Source: Candidatus Saccharicenans sp. (lineage in GTDB: Bacteria; Acidobacteriota; Aminicenantia; Aminicenantales; Saccharicenantaceae). From it: a stretch of DNA of 64,000 bases. The stretch is from assembly GCA_024653215.1 (NCBI GenBank), contig JANLFU010000007.1, forward strand, positions 62,001-126,000. Reading direction: 5' to 3'. Within the stretch, counting starts at the first letter, position 1. The number at the start of each line of letters is the position of its first letter. Both the position numbers and the translations under genes were made by a program. Shown one piece after another: positions 40-23,238 of this stretch. Under the pieces are notes generated by a model. It was not told the DNA's origin, ran no database searches, and was given only the letters and a program-made list of their open reading frames with translations.

Positions 40-1332
40 TTATTTGCCTCCTTTCCTGGGATCAGTGATATATCCGGTTAGAGCGCTGGCCGCAGCCACG
101 GCCGGCGAGCAGAGGTAAACATCTGCCTTGGGATTACCCATCCGGCCCTTGAAATTGCGGTTGGTGGTGGACAGGGCCACTTCACCGTCGCCCAGGGCTC
201 CCTGGTGGACCCCCAGGCAGCAGCCGCAGCCCGGGTTCATGACGACTGCCCCGGCCCTGACCAGGTCGGCAATGTAGCCCAGCTTCAGGGCCTGCTGGTA
301 GATGCGAAAGGAAGCCGGGAAGACCAGCATCCTGACGCCCCTGGCTATTTTCTTTCCTTTAAGGATTCTGGCGGCTACCGCCAGGTCATCCAGCCGGCCG
401 TTGGTGCAGGAACCGATGACAATCTGGTCCACTTTGACCTTGCCCACCCGGCCGACCGGCTTAACATTATCCACCGTGTGCGGACAGGCCACCATCGGCT
501 CCAGCCTGGAAACATCTATTTCCACGACTTTTTCATATTCGGCATCGGGGTCTGGTCCAAAAATTTCAATTTTACCTTTGACCCTGGCCTCTTCCTTGAG
601 GTAACGCAGGGTTTCTTTATCGGGTGGCACTATTCCGGAAGTGGCCCCGGCTTCGACCGACATGTTGCAGACAGTCAACCGGCCGGAAGTATCCATGTGC
701 TCGATGGCCGGGCCATGGTATTCCAGCACCTTGAAATTGGCCCCCTCGGCCGTGATCAGCCCGATGAGGTACAGGATGAAATCCTTGGGCAGAACGTGGC
801 GCGGAAACCGGCCCCTGGCCACCACCTTGATGGTTCCGGGGACTTCCACGTTGAGCACCTGTCCCAGGGCCCAGACCGAGGCCATCTCCGTGGCCCCGAT
901 GCCGAAACTGAAGGCACCCAGGGCCCCGTGGGAAGTGGTGTGGCTGTCGGTACCCACCACCACCGTCCCCGGCAGGACGTAACCGCTCTCCGGCAGAATC
1001 TGGTGGCAGATACCGCCCTCATCACCCCGGATGTCGTGAAATTTCTTTATCTTCTGGGCAGCCACGAATTCCCGGATTTTCTTCTGGTTGGTGGCCGTCT
1101 TGGAGCTCTCGGCCGGCACCCGGTGGTCCAGGATGATGGCGATCTTATCCGGGTCCCAGACCCGGGGCTTTAAACCCGTATCCTTATAGACTTCCAGAAA
1201 TTGATTGATGACCAGAGCCGCATTCTCGTGCGACATGGCCAGGCTGACCTTAGGCTCAACCACCTGGCCCGCCTTAACCTTCTTCTGGCCGGTAGCCCTG
1301 GCCAGAATCTTTTCCACCATGGTCAGGCCCAT
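40..1332 (-). CDS. leuC: LeuC/homoaconitase-type hydro-lyase, large subunit
   Basis: This 430-residue aconitase-superfamily large subunit is of the short archaeal/anaerobic LeuC type. It carries the substrate/loop signature VVGTDSHTTSHGALGAF and the Fe-S ligands in IGSCTNGR and NPGCGCCLG (about residues 305-370). These enzymes isomerise 2- or 3-hydroxy acids through a [4Fe-4S]-assisted dehydration in the cytosol. AAGGAGGT lies just upstream of the ATG. A small subunit follows directly, and a PEP-mutase-family lyase lies upstream on the same strand. No leuA or leuB is visible, so isopropylmalate is not the only possible substrate: homoaconitate, citramalate or 2,3-dimethylmalate dehydratases have the same architecture. 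Family assignment is firm, substrate is open. Confidence 0.9.
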   Translation of the reverse strand: MGLTMVEKILARATGQKKVKAGQVVEPKVSLAMSHENAALVINQFLEVYKDTGLKPRVWDPDKIAIILDHRVPAESSKTATNQKKIREFVAAQKIKKFHDIRGDEGGICHQILPESGYVLPGTVVVGTDSHTTSHGALGAFSFGIGATEMASVWALGQVLNVEVPGTIKVVARGRFPRHVLPKDFILYLIGLITAEGANFKVLEYHGPAIEHMDTSGRLTVCNMSVEAGATSGIVPPDKETLRYLKEEARVKGKIEIFGPDPDAEYEKVVEIDVSRLEPMVACPHTVDNVKPVGRVGKVKVDQIVIGSCTNGRLDDLAVAARILKGKKIARGVRMLVFPASFRIYQQALKLGYIADLVRAGAVVMNPGCGCCLGVHQGALGDGEVALSTTNRNFKGRMGNPKADVYLCSPAVAAASALTGYITDPRKGGK

Positions 1333-1466
1333 CTTCTAACCTCCTTCCCGGCCGGAGGCCGGGTTGATTAATTTCTCAAGTCCTCAATCTTTGAATATGA
1401 CCTTCAGTTCCGCTTTCTATAAATATGATATTAATTTGCCACCCTTATTATCACCGAACCGGAATT

Positions 1467-2378
1467 CTATTTATACTTGCACTCGAGTTTTTCTTTGGGC
1501 AGGTATTCTTCTTCCAGCTTCCGGTACTCTTTAAGCCCAACAAAGGTGGTAAACTCTTCGAAGCTGGACAGCCACTGGGTCTGGCCGGCCAGGATGCCGG
1601 TCGGGGAATTCTTCAGGGCGGTGAAGAACTCCATCAGGGCCTTGTGCATGACCATGATCGAAGCTACCGGTATGGAAACCCGGCCCACGCCCATTCTGGC
1701 CAGCTCCGGGATGGGAATGAGCTCAGTCTTAACGCCGCTCACGGCGTCCATCAGGTTGACCGACAGCGGGCCCTTGATTTCCTTAATTGCTCTTTCTATG
1801 TCCGCCCGGCTCTTGATGCCGTCTATGAAAGCCAGGTCAGCCCCGGCTTCCAAATACAGGTTGCAGCGCCGGATGGCCTCGTCCAGGCCGGCCACGGCAA
1901 AGACATCCGTCCTGGCATTGATGATGAAATCGGGGTCGAGGCGGTCGCGAACCCTGGCGCAGGCTTTAATCTTTCCGACCATTTCTTCGGCCGGAATGAC
2001 TTCCTTGCCGGCCATGTGGCCACAGCGCTTGGGAAAGACCTGGTCCTCGATATTCAGGCCAGCCGCGCCCATGGTGATGACCCGCTCGGTAACCCAGGCG
2101 GCGTTGATGGCGTTGCCGCCGCCGGTATCGACGTCGGCCATGACCGGGATGTTAACGGCCTGGACAATATTCCAGGTCAGGTCCAGGACATCCTTCATCT
2201 GGACCAGGCCGACATCGGGTTTGGCCAGGAGCGAACCGGCCAGCCCGAAGCCCGAAACCTGGATGGCTTCAAAGCCGCATTTTTCGATGATTTTAGCACT
2301 CAGGGCATCGTGGCAGCCGGGAACCACCACCGCCCGACGTTCCATGATGGCTTTTCTTAAAACCGTTGTCTTTTTCAT
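1467..2378 (-). CDS. Isocitrate lyase/PEP mutase family lyase (methylisocitrate or dimethylmalate lyase-like)
   Basis: This 303-residue TIM-barrel protein belongs to the ICL/PEPM family. It has the Mg-binding segment MADVDTGGG, IEDQVFPKRCGH with the catalytic KRCGH motif, and the NARTD segment. Such enzymes cleave or form C-C bonds next to a carboxylate (2-methylisocitrate lyase, 2,3-dimethylmalate lyase, oxaloacetate decarboxylase). I chose the ATG at 2378 rather than the in-frame TTG one codon earlier, because AAGGAG sits six bases from the ATG. It is co-directional with the LeuC/LeuD-type pair, 134 bases upstream of leuC. In clostridial nicotinate fermentation a LeuCD-like dehydratase and a lyase of this family act in sequence (2,3-dimethylmalate dehydratase and lyase), so a shared pathway is plausible but unproven. 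Confidence 0.85.
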   Translation of the reverse strand: MKKTTVLRKAIMERRAVVVPGCHDALSAKIIEKCGFEAIQVSGFGLAGSLLAKPDVGLVQMKDVLDLTWNIVQAVNIPVMADVDTGGGNAINAAWVTERVITMGAAGLNIEDQVFPKRCGHMAGKEVIPAEEMVGKIKACARVRDRLDPDFIINARTDVFAVAGLDEAIRRCNLYLEAGADLAFIDGIKSRADIERAIKEIKGPLSVNLMDAVSGVKTELIPIPELARMGVGRVSIPVASIMVMHKALMEFFTALKNSPTGILAGQTQWLSSFEEFTTFVGLKEYRKLEEEYLPKEKLECKYK

Positions 2379-2393
2379 CAATTTCTCCTTGGG

Positions 2394-2421
2394 TTGTATA
2401 AAGTTGAAGAATTATTATAAT
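2394..2421 (+). promoter_or_regulatory. Putative sigma70-type promoter for the TipAS-like/MFS genes
   Basis: TTGTAT (2394-2399), a 16-base spacer and a perfect TATAAT (2416-2421) face the TipAS-like gene, whose start lies 37 bases beyond the -10 box. The sequence is AT-rich against a GC-rich background. The -35 box is weak and the assignment rests on sequence alone. Confidence 0.45.
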
Positions 2422-18338: not shown

Positions 18339-19013
18339 ATGAAAACAACCGCTATCATCCTCGGAGGAGGCCGTGGGACCAGGCTGGGCTTCACCGTCCC
18401 CAAGCAATTTGCCCGGCTTGGAGGCCGACCGCTCTTTGATTATTCGGTCGAAAAATTCTCGGCGCTTAAGGTGGACCAGATCGTGGCCGTCCTGGTTGAA
18501 GATTACAAGAACTATTACCAGCCGCATCCGGCCATAGCTATTACCGCCCCGGCCGGCGAGAGCCGGCAGCAATCGGTGCTAAACGGCCTCGCGGCCTGCC
18601 CCAATGATACCGACCTGGTCGTCATCCACGACTCGGCCCGGCCTTTCTTTCCGCTCAGGGCCCTGGAAGAGGGGCTGAAATTACTGGGAGAAAACAGGTA
18701 CGACGGCCTGGCCCTGGCGATTCCATCCACCGACACCCTGGTTGAAATCGAGGCCGGCCGGGTGGTGGACTTTCCGGACAGAAGCAAAATTTACAGGATG
18801 CAGACCCCGCAGCTGTTTCGCTTCCAGTCTATAAGAGAGGCCTACGAAAGATTGCGGGGACGGGAATTCACCGATGACCTGTCGCTGGCCTGGGCCGCCG
18901 GGCTGAGATGCGGTCTCCTGGAAGGCAGCCAGCTGAATTTCAAGATCACCACCGAGACTGACTGGCTACTGGCCGAGAGTCTCCTGAACTCAGGCGGGCT
19001 GGAGCTTGTTTAA
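18339..19013 (+). CDS. ispD: 2-C-methyl-D-erythritol 4-phosphate cytidylyltransferase
   Basis: The 224-residue enzyme transfers CMP to methylerythritol phosphate in the non-mevalonate isoprenoid pathway. Motifs: the CTP loop LGGGRGTRLG with PKQFARLGGRP, the AGESRQQSVLNGL segment, IHDSARPF and the TPQLF segment. AGAGGAT lies upstream of the ATG. Its last 24 bases overlap, tail to tail, the last bases of the CDP-alcohol phosphotransferase gene on the other strand. No ispF is fused or adjacent. Confidence 0.92.
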   Translation: MKTTAIILGGGRGTRLGFTVPKQFARLGGRPLFDYSVEKFSALKVDQIVAVLVEDYKNYYQPHPAIAITAPAGESRQQSVLNGLAACPNDTDLVVIHDSARPFFPLRALEEGLKLLGENRYDGLALAIPSTDTLVEIEAGRVVDFPDRSKIYRMQTPQLFRFQSIREAYERLRGREFTDDLSLAWAAGLRCGLLEGSQLNFKITTETDWLLAESLLNSGGLELV

Positions 19014-20315
19014 GGCCTTCTTTCTAAGCTGCCGCCGTGACCAGCTGCCGAAATAGACCGCTTCCAGGAAGGCAAAAAACGAAACCATGATCGCCAGCAA
19101 CCTGGCTCCCCCCAGGGCAATCAGGACAAAGGCCAGGGTGGTGAAAAAGTCCCTCCGGTAGATGAAGGCAATTCTGGAGGCCAGCCGGTCAGCCCAGGTC
19201 TGAAAATCGGGGTCGTGGATGCTGGTTTCTATTTCCCGGGCGATGGGTACTATGTTAAAGCCGATACCGGCTCTCCGGGCGTAATGGATCATCTGCAGGT
19301 AAAAGCCGACCATCGACAGCCAGCCGAAAGCACCGACGTACAGCCAGGCCTCACTGGAGGTCCCCCGGTAAAGCCCCAGGGGCAGCGCGGTGAAAAAGGT
19401 TACATATAAGAAAGCATCGGCCGAGATATCAAAAATTGTGCCGAACCGCGAAACCCGGCAGGTCAACCTGGCATTTTCACCGTCGCAGCAGTCTATGACC
19501 GAGGCCACCAGGAATAGAAAGGAACCCAGGGCCATGGAGCCATATCGTCCCTTTAAAATCAGGTAGACGCTGAGCAGTTCAACGGCCAGGACGATCAGGC
19601 TGATCTGGTTGGGAGTCAGGCCCCACCTGATCAGATGCCGGGTCAACCTGAGGGAAATCGGGCGGAACCAGACCCGGGTGATGTAGCCGTCCACGGGTTT
19701 TCGCCCGGTTTCCAGAAGAAGTTTTTCGGCCTGGCGGGCCTCTCCCGGGCCATCAATTCTTACGGCAAAGGGACAATCAACCTCAAGACTGCCAGTAGAA
19801 ATAGAGTCCCCGGGTTTTTCCAGCCCGTCTGACCCGGTGCCTGTAGAACTCATTAGGGCCGGCAGAAGGTTGCCGATTCTTTCCCGGTTAACCAAAAAGG
19901 CCCCGACCCGGCCGGACCGTCCGCCGGCAGAAGAACCATTCGGGTTGACGAGAATCAGGTCTTGGCCGGGCTCCTGGCCACTAGCCCGGACAATAGACGT
20001 AAAAAAATCAGGGTGCACCACCAGCTTATCTTCCAGGACCAGGACATGCGAATTGCCGTTCTTTTCAGAGCCAGCCTGCGGGATATTTTCTGGCGTCCAG
20101 ATAGCCAGCTCCATCTTTTCCGGGCTGAACCTCCGGTCTGAACGGAGTTTTTCCAGGACCTGACGGGCCAGACCGGGTTGTTCTGAATACAGCCAGAATT
20201 TTCGCAGCCCGGCCTTCTGGCCATAAAGAATCAGCCTTTCCAGCAGGCTCAGTCCCAGGATCCTGGTCTGGCCTTCCCGGCTCAGCAGGACTATTGTTTC
20301 TTCCATTGCTTTCAC
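18990..20315 (-). CDS. CDP-alcohol phosphotransferase with divergent N-terminal nucleotidyltransferase-like domain (copy 2)
   Basis: The 441-residue protein has a C-terminal CDP-AP membrane domain (about 225-430, several helices) with the complete motif DCCDGENAR-x8-G-x3-D-x3-D. It transfers a phospho-alcohol from a CDP-activated donor. The N-terminal half (about 1-215) keeps the outline of a nucleotidyltransferase (VLVLEDKLVVHPDFF) but lacks the GGG/AAGxGxRL nucleotide loop. It is a paralogue of the 435-residue protein at 21139-22446. The start is GTG 20315 or ATG 20306. It follows a nucleotidyltransferase gene by 143 bases. The product may be an inositol-phosphate-type lipid or solute; the alcohol is not determined. 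Confidence 0.82.
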   Translation of the reverse strand: MKAMEETIVLLSREGQTRILGLSLLERLILYGQKAGLRKFWLYSEQPGLARQVLEKLRSDRRFSPEKMELAIWTPENIPQAGSEKNGNSHVLVLEDKLVVHPDFFTSIVRASGQEPGQDLILVNPNGSSAGGRSGRVGAFLVNRERIGNLLPALMSSTGTGSDGLEKPGDSISTGSLEVDCPFAVRIDGPGEARQAEKLLLETGRKPVDGYITRVWFRPISLRLTRHLIRWGLTPNQISLIVLAVELLSVYLILKGRYGSMALGSFLFLVASVIDCCDGENARLTCRVSRFGTIFDISADAFLYVTFFTALPLGLYRGTSSEAWLYVGAFGWLSMVGFYLQMIHYARRAGIGFNIVPIAREIETSIHDPDFQTWADRLASRIAFIYRRDFFTTLAFVLIALGGARLLAIMVSFFAFLEAVYFGSWSRRQLRKKALNKLQPA

Positions 20316-20458
20316 TGTTTATAAGGCCATATGCCTGAAAAATAAGTGTTTCTTTTATCACAATGCTGCCCGAAATTCAACCAAAGGCGGGAAATTTGCC
20401 GGCAGAGGAACCTAGCCGGGCCTCTTGCCTGGAGCCCTGGCCCGGGGTTTGACCCGGG

Positions 20459-21142
20459 CTATCTGCCAGAGGCCAGGTAAGCCCTGACCCGCTCCAGGTC
20501 CTCGGGAAAATCTACTTCGTGGCAGAATAGCCCGTCGGAGGGCACAGCTAAGAACCGGCCTTTTTCCTGAACGATGTAATTTTCTATCGCTTTTTCAAAA
20601 TAGTCGTTGTCGCCCACCAGTTCCAGGTGCCTTCTCAGGGGCTCAAGGTCGGCCCGGGCGACCAGGTTGATACCCAGGGCCTCGCCCTCGGCCGACTCCA
20701 CCTGCTTGGAAATTTCTGTAATAAAACCGGCCCCGTCGGTTCTGTATTTCACCTCTTCCGGGCCGCATCTCTTGTCATCGACCAAAACGCAGGAACACCC
20801 GGCAGAGAGCATCTTCGGGATTATCCCCCGGTCAAAAATCACATCCCCGTTTATCCAGAGCACGTCCTCGTCCAGCCGGCTCAGGCCCTTGAGCAGGCTC
20901 TTGCTGGTATTGGTGACGGCAAACCTCTCGTTAAAGGTATAGGTCAGCTCGGGGTGCCTGGCCACAATCAATTCTTTCCTGAAACCGACCACCACCAGAA
21001 TGTTTTCCACGGGAATAAAGGGTTTGAGGTTTTCCACCTGGTAATCGATTATGGTTCGCCGGTCGTCGACCGGGACCATGGCCTTGGGTAAGTCCAGGCC
21101 GAGCCTGGTTCCCCGTCCGGCGGCCAGAATGACTGCTTTCAC
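20459..21142 (-). CDS. Sugar/alcohol-phosphate nucleotidyltransferase (pair 2)
   Basis: The 227-residue GT-A-fold enzyme has the nucleotide loop VILAAGRGTRLG with PKAMVPV, and the metal-binding segment WINGDVIFD. It should activate a phosphorylated alcohol or sugar with CTP or a related nucleotide. The start is GTG 21142, overlapping the previous stop in a GTGA arrangement, so it is coupled to the upstream CDP-alcohol phosphotransferase. It probably supplies a CDP-activated substrate for one or both phosphotransferases of this cluster. Which nucleotide and substrate are used is unknown. A GC-rich hairpin (CCCGGG pair) lies just after its stop. Confidence 0.85.
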   Translation of the reverse strand: MKAVILAAGRGTRLGLDLPKAMVPVDDRRTIIDYQVENLKPFIPVENILVVVGFRKELIVARHPELTYTFNERFAVTNTSKSLLKGLSRLDEDVLWINGDVIFDRGIIPKMLSAGCSCVLVDDKRCGPEEVKYRTDGAGFITEISKQVESAEGEALGINLVARADLEPLRRHLELVGDNDYFEKAIENYIVQEKGRFLAVPSDGLFCHEVDFPEDLERVRAYLASGR

Positions 21143-22446
21143 TGAAGTTCTCCTTTTCTCTGCGCTTCAGGATTCATTTTTCTCCGGGAATAGAAATAAA
21201 AATAAAGGGCTTCCAGGAAGGCCATCACCGCCGCCAGGACCATGGCCGGCCGGGCCAGTCCGGCCACTATCAAAATAAAAGCGGCGGTTGAAAAAAAATC
21301 GCGGCGGTAGATAAAGGCCAGGCTGGCCGCCAGGCGGTCAATAGCCGTCTGAAACTGGGGCAGGTTCCGGCTGGCTTCAACTTCTTTGACCACAGCCACG
21401 ATATTATAACCGAGTCCAGTCTTCCTGGCATAGTTAATGAGCTGCAGGTAAAAGGTCACCATGGAGGCCAGGGCAAAGGCTCCAAGGTAGAGCCAGATTT
21501 TTTCACCGTAAGTCCGGTAAAGCCCGACCGGCAGGGCCACAAAAAACGAAACAAAGGTTACGGCGTCAGCGGTGATATCCAGGGCCTGTCCGGTCCTGGT
21601 CATCCTGTAGGTCAGGCGGGCGTTTTCCCCGTCGCAGCCATCTATTATTGAAGCCAGTTCGAAGAGTATTCCCCCCGGTACCAGTAACTGCTGGCCGTAG
21701 CCCACAAAAAATACACTCAGAAGACCCACAGCAAAGGTTATAATGCTCTGGGCTATGGGGTGGATATTAAGATAAAGAAAATATTTTGTCAGAAACAGGG
21801 AAATCCGTCGGTTTATCAACCTGGCCACCAGCCCGTCCTGGGGCTTGCGGGCGGTCTGAAGCAACAACTTCCGGGCCCGGATAAAACTTTTTCTATCTTT
21901 CACGGCCACGGCAAATCCGGCCAGCCATACTACAGAGGCTTCACCCTTCTCGGTCCCGACCTCAATTTCGCCAATGGCTTTGCCCGCCAACAGCTGGCTT
22001 AAAACCAGATTACCCCCGGCCCCGGAGCGAACCACCAGCAGCCCGGAACAGGGTTGATGGTGACCCGCCTTGTCCTGAAGTTCTATCCTGACCAAGGGCC
22101 GGTCCAGGCCTTCAAGGTTTTCCGCCAGCCTGAAAAAGATAGTTGGGTCAAGGACCAGGTTATCTTCAATGAACAAAAGAGAATCATCCCTGGACGGAGC
22201 CTGCAACTCGCTCCCGAGCAAATCCTGACTTAAAACCTTGAAACGGATATTCCGGTCAAGCACTCTCCGGTCAGAGGAAAGTTCAAAGACGGCCTTTTGC
22301 GCTTCGGCCCTGTCGGGGTGAAAAAGCCAGAACTCGCCCCACCCGGCCTGGCTGGCATTCAAGATCAGGCGTTGCCTCAGGGTAAGGCCCAGCATTTTTT
22401 TCTGCCCGGCCTGAGTTAGAATTAGTACTGCTTTTCTGCCTGACAT
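21139..22446 (-). CDS. CDP-alcohol phosphotransferase with divergent N-terminal nucleotidyltransferase-like domain (copy 1)
   Basis: The 435-residue protein has a C-terminal CDP-AP domain with the full motif IDGCDGENAR-x8-G-x3-D-x3-D, as in DIPP synthase and phosphatidylinositol-phosphate synthases. Its N-terminal ~210 residues resemble a nucleotidyltransferase in layout (LLFIEDNLVLDP; KDRKSFIRARKLLLQT before the membrane domain). The nucleotide loop is degenerate (LILTQAGQKKMLG). Bifunctional IPCT/DIPPS enzymes of hyperthermophiles have the same order of domains with an intact loop. I chose the ATG at 22446 behind GGAGGA over an upstream in-frame ATG. It lies 63 bases after an IPCT-like gene, which may supply the lost activity. 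Confidence 0.83.
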   Translation of the reverse strand: MSGRKAVLILTQAGQKKMLGLTLRQRLILNASQAGWGEFWLFHPDRAEAQKAVFELSSDRRVLDRNIRFKVLSQDLLGSELQAPSRDDSLLFIEDNLVLDPTIFFRLAENLEGLDRPLVRIELQDKAGHHQPCSGLLVVRSGAGGNLVLSQLLAGKAIGEIEVGTEKGEASVVWLAGFAVAVKDRKSFIRARKLLLQTARKPQDGLVARLINRRISLFLTKYFLYLNIHPIAQSIITFAVGLLSVFFVGYGQQLLVPGGILFELASIIDGCDGENARLTYRMTRTGQALDITADAVTFVSFFVALPVGLYRTYGEKIWLYLGAFALASMVTFYLQLINYARKTGLGYNIVAVVKEVEASRNLPQFQTAIDRLAASLAFIYRRDFFSTAAFILIVAGLARPAMVLAAVMAFLEALYFYFYSRRKMNPEAQRKGELQ

Positions 22447-22509
22447 TTTTCCTCCGCTGGCTTGCTTAAGGCTCCGGAAGCCCTGCTGGCTGCCGGACAA
22501 ACCGAAAAT

Positions 22510-23238
22510 TTAATACCAGTCAACTCCAGTCTTCAGGAAACTTTCGGCCCTGTCCAGGGCCTTCGGGTCGTCAACATCAATCCAGAATCTGCCGCCGATA
22601 TCTGCGGCCCTGGCCTGGCCCCGGGCCGCCAGGATTCTAACTCCCGCGGACAGGCTGAAATCCCCGGCCCTCTTCTGGCTTTCCTCCAAGGCTTCAAACA
22701 GCACCGGCTGGCAGAGAAAAACACCCGTGTCAAAGGCATTGTAGTCCTCAAGACCCTTGCCGATATTTTTGATCTTTCCGTTTTCGACCTTGACCCGGGT
22801 CACGTCATTCAGGTCAGCATACGGGTGATTCTTAACCCGGGAATCAACGGCCAGAATAATTTCATCCTGCTTAAGCTCCGCCCGCTGCAGGAGGTCCAAT
22901 ATAGCCGGGTCAAAAATGTGGTCGGACATCAGCAGGAAGAAAGGCTCTTTGATGAGCGGCCTGGCCCTGACAACGGACAGTCCGTTTTCCTTCTGCCACT
23001 GGTCGTTGTAAAGCAGGGTCAGGCTTACTTCACCGGGTGGGAAAGCAGTCCTGAGATGTTCTTCCAGCCTTTCCCGGTTATGACCGGTAACTACTATCAC
23101 CTCTTTAATCCCCGTCTTCTGCAGCCCACCGATGACCCAGTCGATGAGCGGCTGCCGGCAGACCGGAAGCAGCGGCTTTGAGGCGCACAGGCCCGATAGC
23201 CTCTGGCCCTGGCCGGCAGCGATGATCAGGGCTTTCAA
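22510..23238 (-). CDS. Nucleotidyltransferase resembling inositol-1-phosphate cytidylyltransferase (pair 1)
   Basis: The 242-residue GT-A enzyme has the loop LIIAAGQGQRLSG, a metal-binding MSDHIFDP segment, the NDQWQKENGLSV segment and a late WIDVDDPKALDRAE segment. The SDH and MDVD/IDVD patterns match the IPCT domain of archaeal and Thermotoga IPCT/DIPPS proteins as I remember them. It should form CDP-inositol or a similar CDP-alcohol. It is the first gene of a four-gene minus-strand run followed by a phosphotransferase. The ATG start lies behind AAGGAGAAC. Substrate specificity is inferred only. Confidence 0.8.
   Translation of the reverse strand: MKALIIAAGQGQRLSGLCASKPLLPVCRQPLIDWVIGGLQKTGIKEVIVVTGHNRERLEEHLRTAFPPGEVSLTLLYNDQWQKENGLSVVRARPLIKEPFFLLMSDHIFDPAILDLLQRAELKQDEIILAVDSRVKNHPYADLNDVTRVKVENGKIKNIGKGLEDYNAFDTGVFLCQPVLFEALEESQKRAGDFSLSAGVRILAARGQARAADIGGRFWIDVDDPKALDRAESFLKTGVDWY

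What the first reader, a model, noticed from the sequence alone, without database searches (positions are those of the whole stretch)
18990..23238. Two tandem pairs of nucleotidyltransferase and CDP-alcohol phosphotransferase with dead-looking N-terminal domains
Each phosphotransferase has a degenerate nucleotidyltransferase domain lacking the nucleotide loop, and each pair has a separate intact nucleotidyltransferase. The layout copies IPCT/DIPPS, here split and duplicated. It may make an inositol-phosphate-type solute or lipid head group in a mesophile-like genome.
Basis: partly seen in the sequence, partly recalled or inferred. Interest (0 to 1): 0.65.

Follow-up and report, generated by a model that had tools for sequence, protein, structure and literature searches.

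The report
Split inositol-phosphate enzymes with pseudo-nucleotidyltransferase domains
A deep-branching bacterium carries two adjacent two-gene sets that activate a small phosphate compound with CTP and pass it on with a membrane enzyme whose first half is a burnt-out copy of the activating enzyme; one set very probably makes CDP-inositol and points to an undescribed inositol-containing product at the membrane.

Summary
Four co-directional genes (minus strand) read NT2-CAP2-NT1-CAP1: two intact nucleotidyltransferases (NT) and two CDP-alcohol phosphotransferases (CAP) with intact DxxDGxxAR...GxxxDxxxD motifs. Each CAP's first ~200 residues have the nucleotidyltransferase fold without the nucleotide loop. 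That domain is a decayed IPCT domain: a relative retains 29% identity to the IPCT half of a fused IPCT/DIPPS (E 2e-22). A solved protein, A. fulgidus AF2299, already has this architecture and is the best structural match. NT2 looks like an inositol-1-phosphate cytidylyltransferase: AfIPCT is its best solved match; in related Aminicenantes it sits in an operon MIPS-NT2-flippase-CAP; in the sister genus a homologue is fused to the flippase, beside MIPS. But the CAPs lack the acceptor residues of DIPPS, AF2299 and PIP synthase, so a di-inositol-phosphate solute is not supported; flippase linkage favours a membrane or envelope product. The pairs are not equivalent: NT1 is not IPCT-like (nearest LicC/PntC); its substrate is unknown. 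Every Ca. Saccharicenans genome searched has exactly one of CAP2 or an unlinked CAP3; one CAP3 genome keeps a CAP2 fossil. Pair 1 marks one clade. New variant of a known kind.

The parts
22510..23238 (-). NT2: IPCT-like nucleotidyltransferase, 242 aa, active-site motifs intact (AAGQGQR, SKP, SDHIFD, FWIDVDD)
   Evidence: (best solved match AfIPCT 2xme, E 4e-18)
21139..22446 (-). CAP2: pseudo-nucleotidyltransferase domain (residues 1-~200) + CDP-alcohol phosphotransferase, 435 aa from the conserved ATG
20459..21142 (-). NT1: second nucleotidyltransferase, LicC/PntC-like, 227 aa, GTG start overlapping the CAP2 stop by 4 bases; substrate unknown
18990..20306 (-). CAP1: paralogue of CAP2 (about 40% identical) with the same two-domain build, 438 aa
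23293..23321 (-). possible sigma-70-type promoter (TGGACA-17-TAGAAT) upstream of NT2; consensus match only
   Evidence: 10 of 12 consensus positions; 5 promoter-like sites found in the region against 1.8 expected

Best explanation
NT2-CAP2 is a split, re-purposed IPCT/DIPPS-type system. Inositol-1-phosphate from the genome's MIPS is activated by NT2 with CTP to CDP-inositol. CAP2, anchored by six predicted membrane helices, transfers the inositol-phosphate from CDP-inositol to an acceptor that is not inositol-1-phosphate, most likely a membrane or envelope acceptor whose product is handled by an HpnL/MprF-type (LPG_synthase_TM) flippase-like protein. The CAP N-domain is a retired IPCT domain: it lacks the CTP-binding loop, and it is kept as a structural element packed on the membrane domain as in AF2299, possibly as a docking site for the free NT. 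CAP1-NT1 is a paralogous pair in one clade of the genus, using the same chemistry with another phosphorylated donor activated by NT1. Shown: domain identities, decay of the N-domain, conservation, gene linkages, absence of DIPPS acceptor residues. Inferred: substrates of NT2 and CAP2, the direction of transfer, docking, the membrane product, and everything about the NT1 substrate.
For: NT2: best solved-structure match AfIPCT (4e-18) then IPCT/DIPPS 4mnd; NF041135 over its IPCT half, 137 bits; keeps the columns shared with IPCT domains of fused IPCT/DIPPS that adjoin MIPS (L096/L098/L099 MIPS neighbours). Linkage: L087 operon MIPS - NT2 relative (51%) - flippase - CAP with pseudo-domain (L088 has the same NT-CAP spacing); sister genus g4 has an NT2-like domain (53-54%) fused to the same flippase, beside a MIPS 65% identical to the window genome's; CAP3 loci are flippase-CAP-glycosyltransferase and the window genome keeps that flippase, 62% identical, without CAP3. 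NT2 in 18 of 19 genus genomes; CAP2 or CAP3, never both, in all 19; CAP2 relic in a CAP3 genome. N-domain decay. Structure. Missing DIPPS acceptor residues.
Against: No biochemistry. NT families of this kind switch substrates easily: CpgD, whose top structural match was an IPCT, uses phosphoglycerate (PMC12275187). Six membrane helices is the build described for CDP-APs with soluble acceptors (PMC4634129), which argues for a soluble product. In the window genome MIPS and the flippase are not linked to these genes. The CAP tree has weak deep support and long branches.
Confidence: 0.55

Rival explanations
1. The pairs are a split IPCT/DIPPS and make the compatible solute di-myo-inositol phosphate (or a mixed inositol phosphodiester) in the cytoplasm.
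For: NT2 is IPCT-like; the CAP descends from the fused architecture; MIPS and inositol monophosphatase-family genes are in the genome; six-helix CAP architecture fits a soluble acceptor (PMC4634129).
Against: All CAPs lack the Arg after the last catalytic Asp and the conserved Lys at the end of TM4 that IPCT/DIPPS and AF2299 have, and the second Arg of RDxR, and they carry an extra segment of about 25-30 residues there. Flippase linkage and fusion are not expected for a cytoplasmic solute.
Confidence: 0.17
2. The CAPs are ordinary CDP-diacylglycerol-dependent phospholipid synthases, and the NT genes act in unrelated pathways.
For: CDP-AP signature and six helices; PIP synthases are among the structural matches.
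Against: Conserved operon with an NT in every two-pair genome; CAPs are closer in sequence and structure to AF2299 and IPCT/DIPPS than to PIP synthases; PgsA-, PssA- and PIPS-like enzymes exist elsewhere in the genome.
Confidence: 0.08
3. NT2 and CAP2 act on another polyol phosphate (for example glycerol phosphate or glycerate phosphate), and inositol is a red herring of homology.
For: AF2299, the closest solved relative in architecture, has a CDP-glycerol donor site (PMC4634129); IPCT-like folds serve phosphocholine, phosphoglutamine and phosphoglycerate (PMC12275187).
Against: Direct MIPS linkage of NT2 relatives in two lineages and MIPS in nearly all genomes that carry NT2.
Confidence: 0.18
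4. Pair 1 is a phosphonate (aminoethylphosphonate) tailoring module, as in Nitrospirota.
For: In Nitrospirota L094/L097, CAPs of the same build sit with phosphonopyruvate decarboxylase-like genes, AEP transaminase, an NT1-like gene and a flippase. CAP1 shares the IDCCDGE motif with them.
Against: No aminotransferase beside NT1. The only PEP-mutase-family hit above cut-off in the window genome is methylisocitrate-lyase-like. NT1 has Asn98 where Tde-PntC has the amine-contacting Glu104 (PMC6697681).
Confidence: 0.07

Closest known systems
AF2299 of Archaeoglobus fulgidus (PDB 4o6m/4o6n/4q7c)
   Same: Same two-domain build: cytidylyltransferase-like N-domain with LGLxLRxR at its start, then a six-helix CDP-AP; best structural match of both CAPs over ~325 residues.
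   Different: AF2299 keeps Arg after the last catalytic Asp, a DK motif and RDFR near the acceptor site, which the CAPs lack apart from the RD pair; its donor is given as CDP-glycerol (PMC4634129). Its gene neighbourhood was not examined here.
Bifunctional IPCT/DIPPS (PDB 4mnd; NCBIfam NF041135)
   Same: NT2 matches the IPCT half over its whole length; CAPs match the DIPPS half; the fused form exists in another family of the same order and, elsewhere, beside MIPS.
   Different: Functions split over two genes; IPCT half of the CAP is dead; DIPPS acceptor motif missing; all scores far below the NF041135 cut-off of 580 bits.
Bacteroides vulgatus-type putative inositol-lipid cluster (MIPS, NTP transferase, CDP-AP, HAD; PMC9246714)
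   Same: Same logic: an NTP transferase proposed to make CDP-inositol for a CDP-AP that makes an inositol lipid.
LicC / PntC cytidylyltransferases (PDB 1jyk, 6pd1)
   Same: Among the best solved-structure matches of NT1.
   Different: Similarity is weak and mostly to the N-terminal part; the acidic residue that contacts the amine in PntC is Asn in NT1.
GMPPA (of the GMPPA/GMPPB complex) and eIF2B subunits
   Same: Nucleotidyltransferase-fold relatives among the best N-domain matches. From general knowledge, GMPPA is a catalytically inactive paralogue that partners an active one, an analogy for CAP-NT docking.
   Different: Soluble, unrelated pathways; analogy only.

Membership tests
CDP-alcohol phosphotransferase (class I, PF01066) | DxxDGxxAR(x8)GxxxDxxxD signature and six-helix fold | tested here: met
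   Signature exact in CAP1 and CAP2; PF01066 above cut-off; fold match to AF2299, 4mnd, PIP synthases
AF2299-like (pseudo-cytidylyltransferase + CDP-AP) | N-terminal cytidylyltransferase-like domain without nucleotide loop fused to CDP-AP | tested here: met
AF2299-like (pseudo-cytidylyltransferase + CDP-AP) | AF2299 acceptor-site residues (LDR, DK, RDFR) | tested here: not met
Bifunctional IPCT/DIPPS (NF041135) | Intact IPCT and DIPPS domains in one protein, above the curated cut-off | tested here: not met
   Best scores 67-137 bits against 580 for CAP1, CAP2 and NT2; functions split over two genes
[quoted passage not shown]
   RD is kept (RRDFF), the rest is not
IPCT (CTP:inositol-1-phosphate cytidylyltransferase), NT2 | NTase signature GxGxR...K, metal Asps, and columns shared with MIPS-linked IPCT domains | tested here: met
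IPCT (CTP:inositol-1-phosphate cytidylyltransferase), NT2 | Activity with CTP and inositol-1-phosphate | not testable with these tools
   needs assay
IPCT, NT1 | IPCT-specific columns (KENGLSV, SDHIFD, DTGIF, FWIDVDD) | tested here: not met
   NT1 has TNTSKSL, NGDVIFD, LGINLV, FCHEVDF
PntC / LicC, NT1 | Acidic residue contacting the amine (Tde-PntC Glu104; equivalent to Spn-LicC Asp105) | tested here: not met
   Asn98 aligns with Glu104 (roles from PMC6697681)
PIP / PGP / PS synthases | Closest relationship to PgsA, PssA or PIPS clades | tested here: inconclusive
   CAP1/CAP2/CAP3 lie apart from the window genome's PgsA- and PssA-like enzymes and from L114_PIPS, but deep branches are weak and long

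The most novel reading that the evidence does not exclude
A family of split donor-activation systems in which the phosphotransferase keeps a dead copy of the cytidylyltransferase as a docking platform for whichever live cytidylyltransferase supplies the CDP-alcohol (inositol in pair 2, aminoethylphosphonate in Nitrospirota, an unknown polyol in pair 1), and which builds a flippase-exported inositol-phosphate lipid or envelope decoration via CDP-inositol rather than CDP-diacylglycerol.
Probability: 0.25. Interest if true: 0.72.

Novelty: new variant of a known kind. Interest (0 to 1): 0.5.

Why it matters
Inositol lipids are reported as relatively rare in bacteria (PMC9246714), and a CDP-inositol route to a membrane product has been proposed there but not shown. 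These operons give a compact test: one cytidylyltransferase, one phosphotransferase, one flippase-like protein, in a phylum known mainly from metagenomes. They also show a fused enzyme resolving into two genes while keeping a dead domain, with live-dead intermediates in the database.

Tried and rejected
Phosphonate reading for pair 1: PEP-mutase family search found only a methylisocitrate-lyase-like gene above cut-off. NT1 relatives in 297 genomes of the phylum: strong hits only in the genus, plus weak hits in three other genomes; the neighbourhoods looked at (L134, L136) gave a CDP-AP or an aminotransferase but no clear substrate. Inositol monophosphatase search: present but uninformative, since it is found in all controls. 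The AF2299, 4mnd and first IPCT/DIPPS papers are not in the library; statements about AF2299 rest on PMC4634129. Literature on inositol in Aminicenantes: nothing useful. Timing of the pair-1 duplication: the NT2 tree puts all two-pair genomes in one clade (100/100) while the CAP tree places CAP1 outside all CAP2 (90/86); early duplication with losses and late duplication with fast divergence are not separated.

Full report
What is there. The window lies in a genome of Candidatus Saccharicenans (Aminicenantia): the nearest named relative, Ca. S. subterraneus, carries CAP2 at 89% identity (taxonomy). Four genes on the minus strand form NT2 (22510-23238), CAP2 (21139-22446 from the conserved ATG), NT1 (20459-21142) and CAP1 (18990-20306). 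NT1 overlaps the CAP2 stop by four bases. IspD and TruD-like genes lie on the other strand on one side and a LolA-like gene on the other.

The N-terminal domain. Pfam sees only the CDP-AP domain in the CAPs. A profile of 14 CAP N-domains matches a profile of NT2 and IPCT domains with probability 98.4. The alignment begins just after the nucleotide loop: AAGxGxR...K of the live enzymes is replaced by sequences such as LTQAGQKKMLGLTLRQR. The CAP of L087 is an intermediate, 29% identical over 232 residues to the IPCT half of the fused enzyme in L099 (E 2e-22). AlphaFold models (mean pLDDT 81.4 and 79.0) give a nucleotidyltransferase-fold N-domain and a helical membrane domain; the best structural matches are AF2299 (Z 26.4 and 20.8) and IPCT/DIPPS 4mnd (Z 25.4 and 19.3), with many nucleotidyltransferases matching the N-domain alone at Z about 13-15.5. 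AF2299 is described as having an N-terminal cytidylyltransferase-like domain (PMC4634129), so the architecture is known.

NT2 and inositol. NT2's best solved match is the A. fulgidus IPCT. In L087 the order is MIPS - NT2 relative - LPG_synthase_TM protein - CAP with pseudo-domain, with almost no gaps. In the sister genus g4, an NT2-like domain (53-54%) is fused to the flippase-like domain (46.8% and 44.9% identical to the L087 protein), next to a MIPS 65% identical to the window genome's. Fused IPCT/DIPPS genes in other lineages adjoin MIPS. In the window genome MIPS is elsewhere (C33), beside a PIPS-like CDP-AP, and a likely orthologue (62%) of the CAP3-linked flippase is on C11. So inositol-phosphate supply and the flippase are present but unlinked.

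Reciprocal CAPs. In 19 genus genomes (window genome plus 18), nine have CAP2+CAP1, three CAP2 only, seven a divergent CAP3 (about 34% identical to CAP2; one of the seven is a fragment at a contig end), and none has both CAP2 and CAP3. NT2 is found in 18, the exception being an 82%-complete genome. In the CAP3 genomes where the NT2 locus was read, NT2 stands without a CAP at the IspD/TruD site, and in one of them a CAP2 relic (22 residues, 86% identical, over the catalytic motif) remains between IspD and NT2. Where read in full, CAP3 follows the flippase and precedes a glycosyltransferase. On the NT2 tree the CAP3 label needs three changes (2-3 in bootstraps), so replacement probably happened more than once, though one origin is not ruled out. 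The simplest reading is that CAP2 and CAP3 fill the same role as NT2's partner; simple loss is also possible for the relic.

Acceptor site. In the alignment the fused IPCT/DIPPS proteins, AfDIPPS and AF2299 have Arg directly after the last catalytic Asp, a shared TM4 motif of the type (S/A)YT, mostly with a Lys or His/Tyr two to three residues on, and RDxR near the start of TM5. All CAP1, CAP2, CAP3 and L087 sequences lack these, except the RD pair, and carry an extra segment after TM4. PMC4634129 assigns inositol-phosphate recognition in PIP synthase to two Arg residues, R153 and R191; that these fall in the same area is my inference from the alignment. Hence a DIPPS reaction is unlikely, and the acceptor is open. 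Six helices argue for a soluble acceptor by the rule in PMC4634129; the flippase linkage argues for a membrane product. I weigh the linkage more, without certainty.

Pair 1. CAP1 and CAP2 are sisters in the CAP tree (96/98) and all two-pair genomes form one clade on the NT2 tree. NT1 is highly conserved (82-98%), more so than NT2 (66-88% in the same genomes), but is not IPCT-like; its nearest solved relatives are LicC and PntC among other sugar nucleotidyltransferases. Asn98 at the PntC Glu104 position speaks against an amine substrate. Nitrospirota show that CAPs of this build can sit in aminoethylphosphonate-type clusters, but no such genes flank pair 1. Its substrate is unknown.

Verdict. 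Confirmed observation; interpretation partly right. The single most useful correction is that pair 2 is the inositol-type unit with independent genomic support, pair 1 has a different specificity, and the DIPPS reaction itself is disfavoured.

Noticed in passing
L094 2404-8011, L097 2197-7693: Nitrospirota clusters: phosphonopyruvate/sulfopyruvate decarboxylase-like genes, AEP transaminase, nucleotidyltransferase, CDP-AP with pseudo-NTase-like N-domain, LPG_synthase_TM protein; looks like a phosphonate tailoring pathway.
   Followed up: partly
L114 5364-7238, L115 3792-5639: IPCT-like domain fused to an LPG_synthase_TM (flippase-like) domain in one protein (open frames of 616-625 aa), beside MIPS, in the sister genus.
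   Followed up: partly
L100 5260-7584, L101 4459-6894: Triple fusions IPCT-like - CDP-AP - HAD hydrolase in a Thermoanaerobacterales and an Acidimicrobiales MAG.
   Followed up: no
L029 10678-11331, L096 6686-7294, L098 4226-4810: A DUF4202 (HD-like) gene directly follows fused IPCT/DIPPS genes in three lineages; possible unrecognised step of that pathway.
   Followed up: no
L002 7972-8673 (-): PIPS-like CDP-AP beside the window genome's MIPS has DxxDGxxAT instead of DxxDGxxAR, a change in the usually invariant signature.
   Followed up: no
L035 5266-5370: Relic of the CAP2 catalytic motif between IspD and NT2 in a genome that carries CAP3 elsewhere.
   Followed up: yes
window 1470-2411 (-) and 43-1335 (-): Methylisocitrate-lyase-like gene (below the equivalog cut-offs) next to an aconitase / 3-isopropylmalate dehydratase large-subunit family gene.
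   Followed up: no
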